Positions 37,937-38,199 of a stretch of 64,000 nucleotides of DNA are shown piece after piece. The stretch covers positions 55,512 to 119,511 of the forward strand of contig CAMWJF010000004.1 in assembly GCA_947174505.1 (NCBI GenBank). Reading direction: 5' to 3'. The position numbers and the translations under genes are program-made. This DNA is from an uncultured Lachnospiraceae bacterium. Its GTDB lineage: Bacteria > Bacillota > Clostridia > Lachnospirales > Lachnospiraceae. The notes below the pieces were generated by a model that saw nothing but the letters and a program-made list of their open reading frames with translations, made no database searches and had not been told where the DNA came from. Positions within the stretch are counted from its first letter, which is position 1; the number at the start of each line of letters is the position of its first letter.

Positions 37937-37965
37937 TTGACATGCTGGGAAATAGAATGTAATAT
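37937..37965 (+). promoter_or_regulatory. SigA-type promoter of the leader-peptide/transporter operon
   Basis: TTGACA - 17 bp - TAATAT. Confidence 0.82.
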
Positions 37966-38021
37966 AACATTAAAATTAATTCATAGTTATTACATAGGAA
38001 TAGTATGGAAAGGAGAAAACG

Positions 38022-38138
38022 ATGAGAAGAACAGTAGAAATGAGAAAAGAATATGCAGGAATGAACAGATGTATGTGCTGCTGCTGCATGCCGTGCGCCA
38101 GCATGGTTAAATTACATAGAAAAAGGGACAGCGTCTGA
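38022..38138 (+). CDS. 38-aa Cys/Met-rich small ORF, candidate leader peptide (not in ORF track)
   Basis: MRRTVEMRKEYAGMNRCMCCCCMPCASMVKLHRKRDSV*; AAGGAG upstream; 56 nt after a consensus -10. Confidence 0.75.
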   Translation: MRRTVEMRKEYAGMNRCMCCCCMPCASMVKLHRKRDSV

Positions 38139-38176
38139 AAGTATGGAATCAAGCGAATTGCGCGGATTGTATATGG

Positions 38177-38199
38177 CAGGCCTGTGAGCCTGTTTTTTT
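38177..38199 (+). terminator. Leader terminator (candidate attenuator)
   Basis: CAGGC-CTGTGA-GCCTG-TTTTTTT between the small ORF and the SBP gene. Confidence 0.75.

What the first reader, a model, noticed from the sequence alone, without database searches (positions are those of the whole stretch)
37937..38199. Cys/Met-rich leader peptide followed by a terminator: candidate sulfur-amino-acid attenuator
Seen: consensus promoter (TTGACA-17-TAATAT), then AAGGAG and a 38-codon ORF MRRTVEMRKEYAGMNRCMCCCCMPCASMVKLHRKRDSV. It has 6 Cys (four consecutive TGC) and 6 Met, and is followed 39 nt later by CAGGC-CTGTGA-GCCTG-TTTTTTT, upstream of an amino-acid ABC transporter operon. Established: leader peptides rich in the regulated amino acid control transcription attenuation (trp, his), and poly-Cys uORFs regulating sulfur genes are described in mycobacteria. 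Inference: a Cys (or Met) responsive leader for a sulfur-amino-acid importer. A metal-binding role for the CMCCCCMPC peptide is an alternative. I did not identify a convincing antiterminator by eye; ATCAAGC (38148-38154) can pair with GCTTGAT (38214-38220) across the terminator.
Basis: partly seen in the sequence, partly recalled or inferred. Interest (0 to 1): 0.85.

Follow-up and report, generated by a model that had tools for sequence, protein, structure and literature searches.

The report
Cysteine-sensing leader peptide attenuator
In front of a sulfur-amino-acid importer operon of a gut-type Clostridia bacterium (Lachnospiraceae) lies a tiny gene packed with cysteine codons that most likely lets the cell sense cysteine shortage with its own ribosomes and switch the importer on; the same arrangement recurs in relatives, a lineage where this kind of switch for cysteine had not been described in the papers I could search.

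Summary
In detail: consensus promoter, Shine-Dalgarno, a 38-codon ORF with 6 Cys/6 Met, and an intrinsic terminator before a family-3 amino-acid ABC transporter operon. It is not chance: no other short ORF in the window has a CCC run. Six other species of the genus carry a positionally equivalent Cys/Met-rich leader plus terminator before the homologous operon; three other genera of the family carry MCMCCC leaders before metQ-metN-metI or cystathionine-enzyme/cysK operons. All substitutions in the aligned CMCCC core are synonymous (TGT/TGC), while the peptide tails diverge. In the window it overlaps the leader's stop codon. Best explanation: ribosome-mediated transcription attenuation sensing charged tRNA-Cys (possibly Met too). 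A second, operator-like element in the promoter is shared with a cystathionine-enzyme gene. Some relatives have lost or truncated the leader. The kind of mechanism is known; this CMCCC family, in Lachnospiraceae, matches no Rfam family or NCBIfam model and no paper I found. No expression data exist here.

The parts
37933..37965 (+). Promoter: TTGACA 37937-37942, 17-nt spacer, TAATAT 37960-37965, with a CCTA..TGGG/TAGG imperfect repeat around the -35 that is also seen in G303, G291, G290 and G023
37980..38010 (+). Operator-like element TTCATA-N9-TAGGAATAGTATG in the early transcribed region; present (exact or close) in all own-genus leader promoters, in leaderless G356 and before a leaderless cystathionine-enzyme-like gene
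   Evidence: (1 match in window, 0.01 expected); binding protein not identified
38011..38015 (+). Shine-Dalgarno AGGAG, 6 nt before the leader ATG
38022..38138 (+). Leader ORF MRRTVEMRKEYAGMNRCMCCCCMPCASMVKLHRKRDSV
   Evidence: relatives
38070..38096 (+). Control codons C-M-C-C-C-C-M-P-C (core CMCCC invariant in 8 aligned leaders; only TGT/TGC synonymous changes)
38128..38137 (+). Antiterminator 5' strand (ACAG-C-GUCUG), overlaps the leader stop codon; the conserved GYYUGAA element is 38133-38139
38177..38185 (+). Antiterminator 3' strand = terminator 5' arm and loop (CAGGCCUGU)
38175..38199 (+). Intrinsic terminator, 7-bp stem (GGCAGGC/GCCTGTT), 6-nt loop, T7
   Evidence: CAGGC/GCCTG-T7 invariant in five genus leaders
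38253..39176 (+). Family-3 extracellular solute-binding lipoprotein (best NCBIfam model: cystine SBP, below cut-off)
39192..40178 (+). URO-D family (MtaA/CmuA-like) methyltransferase-type protein, first gene of the operon in most relatives
40195..40938 (+). ABC permease (best NCBIfam model: cystine ABC permease, below cut-off)
40929..41639 (+). ABC permease
41605..42420 (+). ABC ATPase (best NCBIfam model: L-cystine ATPase TcyN, below cut-off); the true start is probably downstream of the listed ORF start

Best explanation
A ribosome-mediated transcription attenuator. RNA polymerase starts about 7 nt after 37965 and a ribosome begins the leader at 38022. With enough Cys-tRNA the ribosome runs through CMCCCC to the stop codon at 38136-38138; there it sits on the 5' strand of the antiterminator (38128-38137), so the 38175-38194 hairpin forms and transcription stops before the importer operon. 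When Cys-tRNA is short, the ribosome waits at the Cys codons about 50 nt upstream, the 38128-38137 strand pairs with the 5' arm of the terminator (38177-38185), and polymerase reads through into the cystine/sulfur-amino-acid ABC transporter genes. In the window's RNA no separate protector hairpin is predicted, so any stall upstream of segment 2, including one at the flanking Met codons, should also allow read-through. Shown by sequence: the parts, their conservation and their complementarity. Inferred: translation, tRNA dependence, direction of the response, substrate of the importer.
For: (1) Same architecture in the genus: G303, found by promoter synteny after the same amylase-like gene, has MKKTIMMQNRMMCMCQGSKLCCGMCCCAKNRRCSMDKK and the same CAGGC..GCCTG-T7 terminator before an SBP; G357, G344, G302, G329, found by SBP homology, and G301, found with the leader profile, have leaders plus terminators before the URO-D gene that starts the homologous operon. 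(2) Three other genera (G291, G290, G023) have MCMCCC leaders plus terminators before MetQ-MetN-MetI, a cystathionine-gamma-synthase/lyase-like enzyme-CysK-MetN-MetI, and an SBP3/MetQ fusion-MetN-MetI. (3) Core Cys codons: third positions vary T/C at all three CCC positions among 8 leaders, first and second positions do not vary. (4) 25 leaders average 15% Cys and 17% Met. (5) GYYUGAA occurs once in each of five genus spacers at 47-50 nt after the last core Cys codon (chance per sequence 0.0015-0.0125 for an offset of 40-52), in codon phases 0, 1 and 2, so it is kept as RNA, not peptide; it is complementary to the terminator arm (94% of cells paired, 3-57% when slid) and pairs with it in nascent-RNA folds of 5/5. 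(6) In the other genera a different segment 2, 8-10 nt after the Cys codons, complements their own terminator arm (G023 11 bp p=0.0005, G290 p=0.007, G291 p=0.07). (7) In the window RNA the arm pairs upstream with P=1.00 when the leader is cleared only past the Cys codons, and in the terminator with P=0.84 when cleared past the stop.
Against: No expression, Ribo-seq or RNA-end data. Covariation is one-sided only (G-U/G-C), never both sides. Individually the segment-2/arm complementarity of the own-genus leaders is not better than shuffles (p 0.07-0.37 for the five with the element, 0.69 for G303, 0.33 for G301), and in G000 and G344 the best plain duplex is a different stretch. G303 has only a weak candidate antiterminator and G301 none. 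In G302, G357 and G344 the element is 20-30 nt before the stop, so masking by a terminating ribosome would be indirect, and in the three other genera segment 2 lies about 50 nt before the stop. Equilibrium folds of G344, G329, G291 and G290 favour the terminator even in the stalled case, so a kinetic argument is needed there. C. aminophilum, with a 54% identical SBP, and G356 lack the leader. Transporter specificity rests on best-but-below-cut-off models.
Confidence: 0.85

Rival explanations
1. The leader senses methionine, or cysteine and methionine together: the invariant Met inside CMCCC and the Met-rich first half are control codons too, and the operon answers to either shortage.
For: Met is 17% of residues over 25 leaders, as high as Cys; CMCCC keeps its Met in 8/8 aligned leaders; downstream genes include metQ-metN-metI and a cystathionine-enzyme-like gene as well as cysK and cystine-type transporters. 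No protector hairpin is predicted in the window, so an earlier stall should also allow read-through.
Against: The longest runs are Cys; Met codons lie mostly upstream of the Cys core; in the trp/his precedents (established knowledge) the codon nearest the switch dominates. P0002 and P0014 have Val instead of the Met in CMCCC.
Confidence: 0.3
2. The peptide itself is functional: a small Cys/Met metal- or redox-binding peptide, or a nascent-chain arrest sequence, with its own terminator.
For: The spacing CMCCCxMSC is conserved in most own-genus leaders and MCMCCC across genera, more than codon counting alone requires.
Against: Tails, length (33-48 aa) and even the Cys arrangement change (G303, G301); G356 deleted the peptide together with the terminator while keeping the operon; the peptide always precedes a terminator and sulfur genes; a conserved RNA element crosses three reading frames.
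Confidence: 0.08
3. The ORF is bystander sequence; the operon is controlled only by a repressor at the promoter element, and the terminator merely lowers expression.
For: A 25-bp operator-like element is conserved with nearly fixed spacing in own-genus promoters and before a leaderless cystathionine-enzyme-like gene.
Against: Synonymous-only change in the core Cys codons, recurrence in three other genera that lack that element, conserved terminator and conserved segment 2.
Confidence: 0.04

Closest known systems
Ribosome-mediated amino-acid attenuators (trp, his, ilv/leu leader peptides; Leu-rich ilv attenuator of Staphylococcus aureus, PMC5794164; His leaders before hisS/hisZ in bacilli, PMC2965389)
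   Same: Short ORF rich in the regulated amino acid, intrinsic terminator, alternative pairing, before genes for that amino acid
   Different: Cys/Met control codons, import and sulfur operons, Lachnospiraceae; no protector hairpin predicted in the window
Polycysteine short ORFs of mycobacteria and other Actinobacteria (PMC1262725; Canestrari 2020, cited in PMC13236596)
   Same: Run of Cys codons before sulfur genes
   Different: Those are leaderless or have the run near the stop with no conserved intrinsic terminator (possibly Rho, or translational); here SD-led ORF, mid-ORF run, intrinsic terminator and antiterminator
uORFC-8-2 motif before cysS in Rhodobacterales (PMC8632094)
   Same: Tandem Cys codons in a uORF with a terminator stem
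   Different: Other phylum, other gene (cysteinyl-tRNA synthetase), tandem Cys at positions 14-15, no CMCCC core
Cysteine T-box and S-box control of clostridial sulfur genes (PMC2940859)
   Same: Premature termination relieved by shortage of the sulfur amino acid, in Clostridia
   Different: RNA binds tRNA or SAM directly; no leader peptide; Rfam finds neither in this window

Membership tests
Ribosome-mediated leader-peptide transcription attenuator | SD-led short ORF just after the promoter | tested here: met
Ribosome-mediated leader-peptide transcription attenuator | Run of codons for an amino acid matching the downstream operon | tested here: met
   CMCCCC; downstream sulfur amino-acid genes in the relatives, cystine-type transporter in the window (below curated cut-offs)
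Ribosome-mediated leader-peptide transcription attenuator | Control codons conserved with synonymous drift | tested here: met
   three of the eight were found with a pattern that demands TGT-ATG-TGY-TGY-TGY, the others by synteny or SBP homology or are the window itself
Ribosome-mediated leader-peptide transcription attenuator | Intrinsic terminator between leader ORF and first gene | tested here: met
Ribosome-mediated leader-peptide transcription attenuator | Antiterminator competing for the terminator's 5' arm, placed where ribosome position controls it | tested here: met
   Predicted and conserved in 5 genus leaders, analogous in 3 other genera; not in G301, weak in G303
Ribosome-mediated leader-peptide transcription attenuator | Read-through changes with charging of the cognate tRNA | not testable with these tools
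   needs expression data
Mycobacterial polycysteine attenuators | Leaderless ORF, no intrinsic terminator | tested here: not met
   SD AGGAG and intrinsic terminator present
Cysteine T-box / SAM (S-box) riboswitch | Match to the Rfam covariance model | tested here: not met
uORFC-8-2 (cysS, Rhodobacterales) | Located before cysS | tested here: not met
Any annotated small-protein family | Match to an NCBIfam model | tested here: not met
   0 families at E<=1; the homologues carry no source name or Pfam domain

The most novel reading that the evidence does not exclude
A lineage-specific family of CMCCC leader peptides that reads cysteine and methionine supply together with a two-state switch (antiterminator by default, terminator only if the ribosome reaches the end), used by Lachnospiraceae where other Firmicutes use T-boxes, S-boxes or CymR; the conserved CMCCCxM spacing may add a nascent-chain component.
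Probability: 0.25. Interest if true: 0.7.

Novelty: new member of a known kind. Interest (0 to 1): 0.5.

Why it matters
PMC2940859 notes that several clostridia lack cysteine T-boxes before their cysteine genes and that other mechanisms may exist. This leader gives a simple, testable answer for part of the Lachnospiraceae, adds sulfur amino acids to the few leader-peptide attenuators known in Firmicutes, and offers a sequence signature (MCMCCC plus terminator) for assigning sulfur transporters of unknown substrate in gut bacteria.

Tried and rejected
Single-peptide search in 299 family genomes gave only noise besides the window; the profile and synteny were needed. A strict promoter pattern found nothing. 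A relaxed CCTATTGACAT pattern in the own genome gave chance-level sites apart from the window's (29 matches, against 61 for the reversed control pattern). A class-wide sample of 394 genomes gave no leader outside the family; the G623 hit lies in ordinary sequence without such an ORF. Of the pattern hits, L090, L092, L093 and L095 are coding or unrelated sequence. Genus searches around G291 and G023 returned only those single genomes. Rfam at E<=10 gives only sub-threshold noise. Paper searches for a Lachnospiraceae cysteine leader found none. The CymR consensus could not be obtained from the papers read, so the regulator of the promoter element is left unnamed.

Full report
Observation. The window lies in a 4.26-Mb genome. 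The best named relative of the first operon gene, 54% identical, is in [Clostridium] aminophilum, a Lachnospiraceae, so I treat the host as Lachnospiraceae by inference. The ORF is the only one of 136 short SD-preceded ORFs in the window with a CCC run, and Markov windows give 0.025 ORFs of equal Cys content per window.

Operon. The genes after the leader are a family-3 solute-binding lipoprotein, a URO-D/MtaA-CmuA-like protein, two permeases and an ATPase. Best NCBIfam models are cystine SBP, cystine permease and the cystine ATPase TcyN for three of the four transporter parts, all below their curated cut-offs; the other permease scores best as ectoine EhuC, with the cystine permease second. 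B. subtilis YtmK is among the closest solved SBPs; that YtmK binds cystine is my own knowledge. A sulfur amino acid is therefore likely, not proven. In G339 and G320 a related transporter operon ends with a cystathionine-enzyme-like gene.

Conservation in the genus. A DNA search of 78 genus genomes found G303, which matches the window from 37851 to 38033 at 73% and continues with a different Cys/Met-rich ORF, the same terminator letters and an SBP. SBP homologues in other genus members pointed to operons that start with the URO-D gene; upstream of it G357, G344, G302 and G329 have leaders and terminators, and G301 was found with the leader profile. G356 has the same promoter but lacks the leader and terminator: the first seven codons MRQTGTM run straight into the URO-D sequence.

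Conservation beyond the genus. A codon pattern across 397 family genomes hit nine; its reversed control hit none in any genome. Besides the window and G302, three are real leaders: G291 before MetQ-MetN-MetI, G290 before a cystathionine-enzyme-like gene, CysK, MetN and MetI, and G023 before an SBP3/MetQ fusion, MetN and MetI. A profile search of 394 class genomes found none outside the family. Protein-database searches gave 16 leader sequences (one identical to G357's), unnamed and without Pfam domains. The 25 distinct peptides average 15% Cys and 17% Met.

Selection on the Cys codons. In the eight leaders with CMCCC, all differences within the core are TGT/TGC. The first Cys codon is TGT in all eight; three of the eight were found with a pattern that demands this, so it should not be over-read. 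Tails differ in length and sequence.

The switch. Between the Cys core and the terminator the five alignable genus leaders share one block, GYYUGAA, whose G and UGAA columns are invariant. It occurs once per spacer, 47-50 nt after the last core Cys codon, in codon phases 0, 1 and 2. It is complementary to the terminator's 5' arm CAGGC(Y)U: 94% of cells paired against 3-57% when slid. Folding nascent RNA with the leader masked only through the Cys codons pairs the arm with this block in all five, for footprints of 9-15 nt. In the window the block overlaps the stop codon, so a ribosome at the stop must cover it. With RNA cleared past the Cys codons the arm pairs upstream (P 1.00); cleared past the stop it forms the terminator (P 0.84). 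The three other genera have unrelated letters but the same logic: a segment just after the Cys codons complements their own terminator arm, 11 bp in G023.

Weak points. Own-genus complementarity is not significant sequence by sequence; changes are one-sided; the block was chosen after seeing the sequences and they share ancestry, so the chance figures are descriptive. G344, G329, G291 and G290 need kinetic folding; G303 and G301 do not fit well. G301 and the related P0012 and P0013 have a shortened leader (in G301 the stop lies 25 nt before the T tract) and G301 has no segment 2; there the Cys codons themselves can pair with the arm, so the sign of the response could differ.

Second layer. A 25-bp element TCATA-N9/10-TAGGAAWAnTA lies just after the -10 in the window (1 match, 0.01 expected), is present exactly or closely at the same place in all own-genus leader operons, persists in leaderless G356, and precedes a leaderless cystathionine-enzyme-like gene in G311, G314 and G316. 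A repressor is likely but unidentified. The operon therefore probably has two controls: initiation and attenuation.

Placement. Ribosome-mediated attenuators are rare but known in Firmicutes (PMC2965389, PMC5794164). Cysteine leaders are known in Actinobacteria (PMC1262725; Canestrari 2020 cited in PMC13236596) and before cysS in Rhodobacterales (PMC8632094). Clostridia are known for cysteine T-boxes and S-boxes, with the remark that other mechanisms may exist (PMC2940859). I found no description of this leader, but most subscription papers were not searchable. I file it as a new member of a known kind.

Noticed in passing
window 37980-38010: Operator-like element shared with the promoter of a cystathionine-enzyme-like gene in G311, G314 and G316; regulator unknown.
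   Followed up: partly
L080 2416-2530 (G356): Leader and terminator deleted; leader start MRQTGTM fused in frame to the URO-D gene, promoter element kept.
   Followed up: partly
L164 1501-1641 (G301); proteins P0012, P0013: Shortened leader without segment 2, stop 25 nt before the T tract; Cys codons complement the terminator arm, so regulation may be altered or inverted.
   Followed up: partly
window 39192-40178: URO-D/MtaA-CmuA-like protein embedded in, and usually first in, a sulfur amino-acid transporter operon; role unknown, possibly demethylation of an imported S-methyl compound.
   Followed up: no
L063 5814-5906 (Clostridium puniceum): Before a 45% identical SBP: short ORF MLKYNLNLIKMYCEKINCNSEPCCYYFNQA, Cys-rich, without a clear terminator; possibly an independent Cys leader.
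   Followed up: no
L169 (G023), complement of 3002-4648: Fusion of a family-3 SBP with a MetQ-type SBP in one 548-aa protein in front of MetN-MetI.
   Followed up: no
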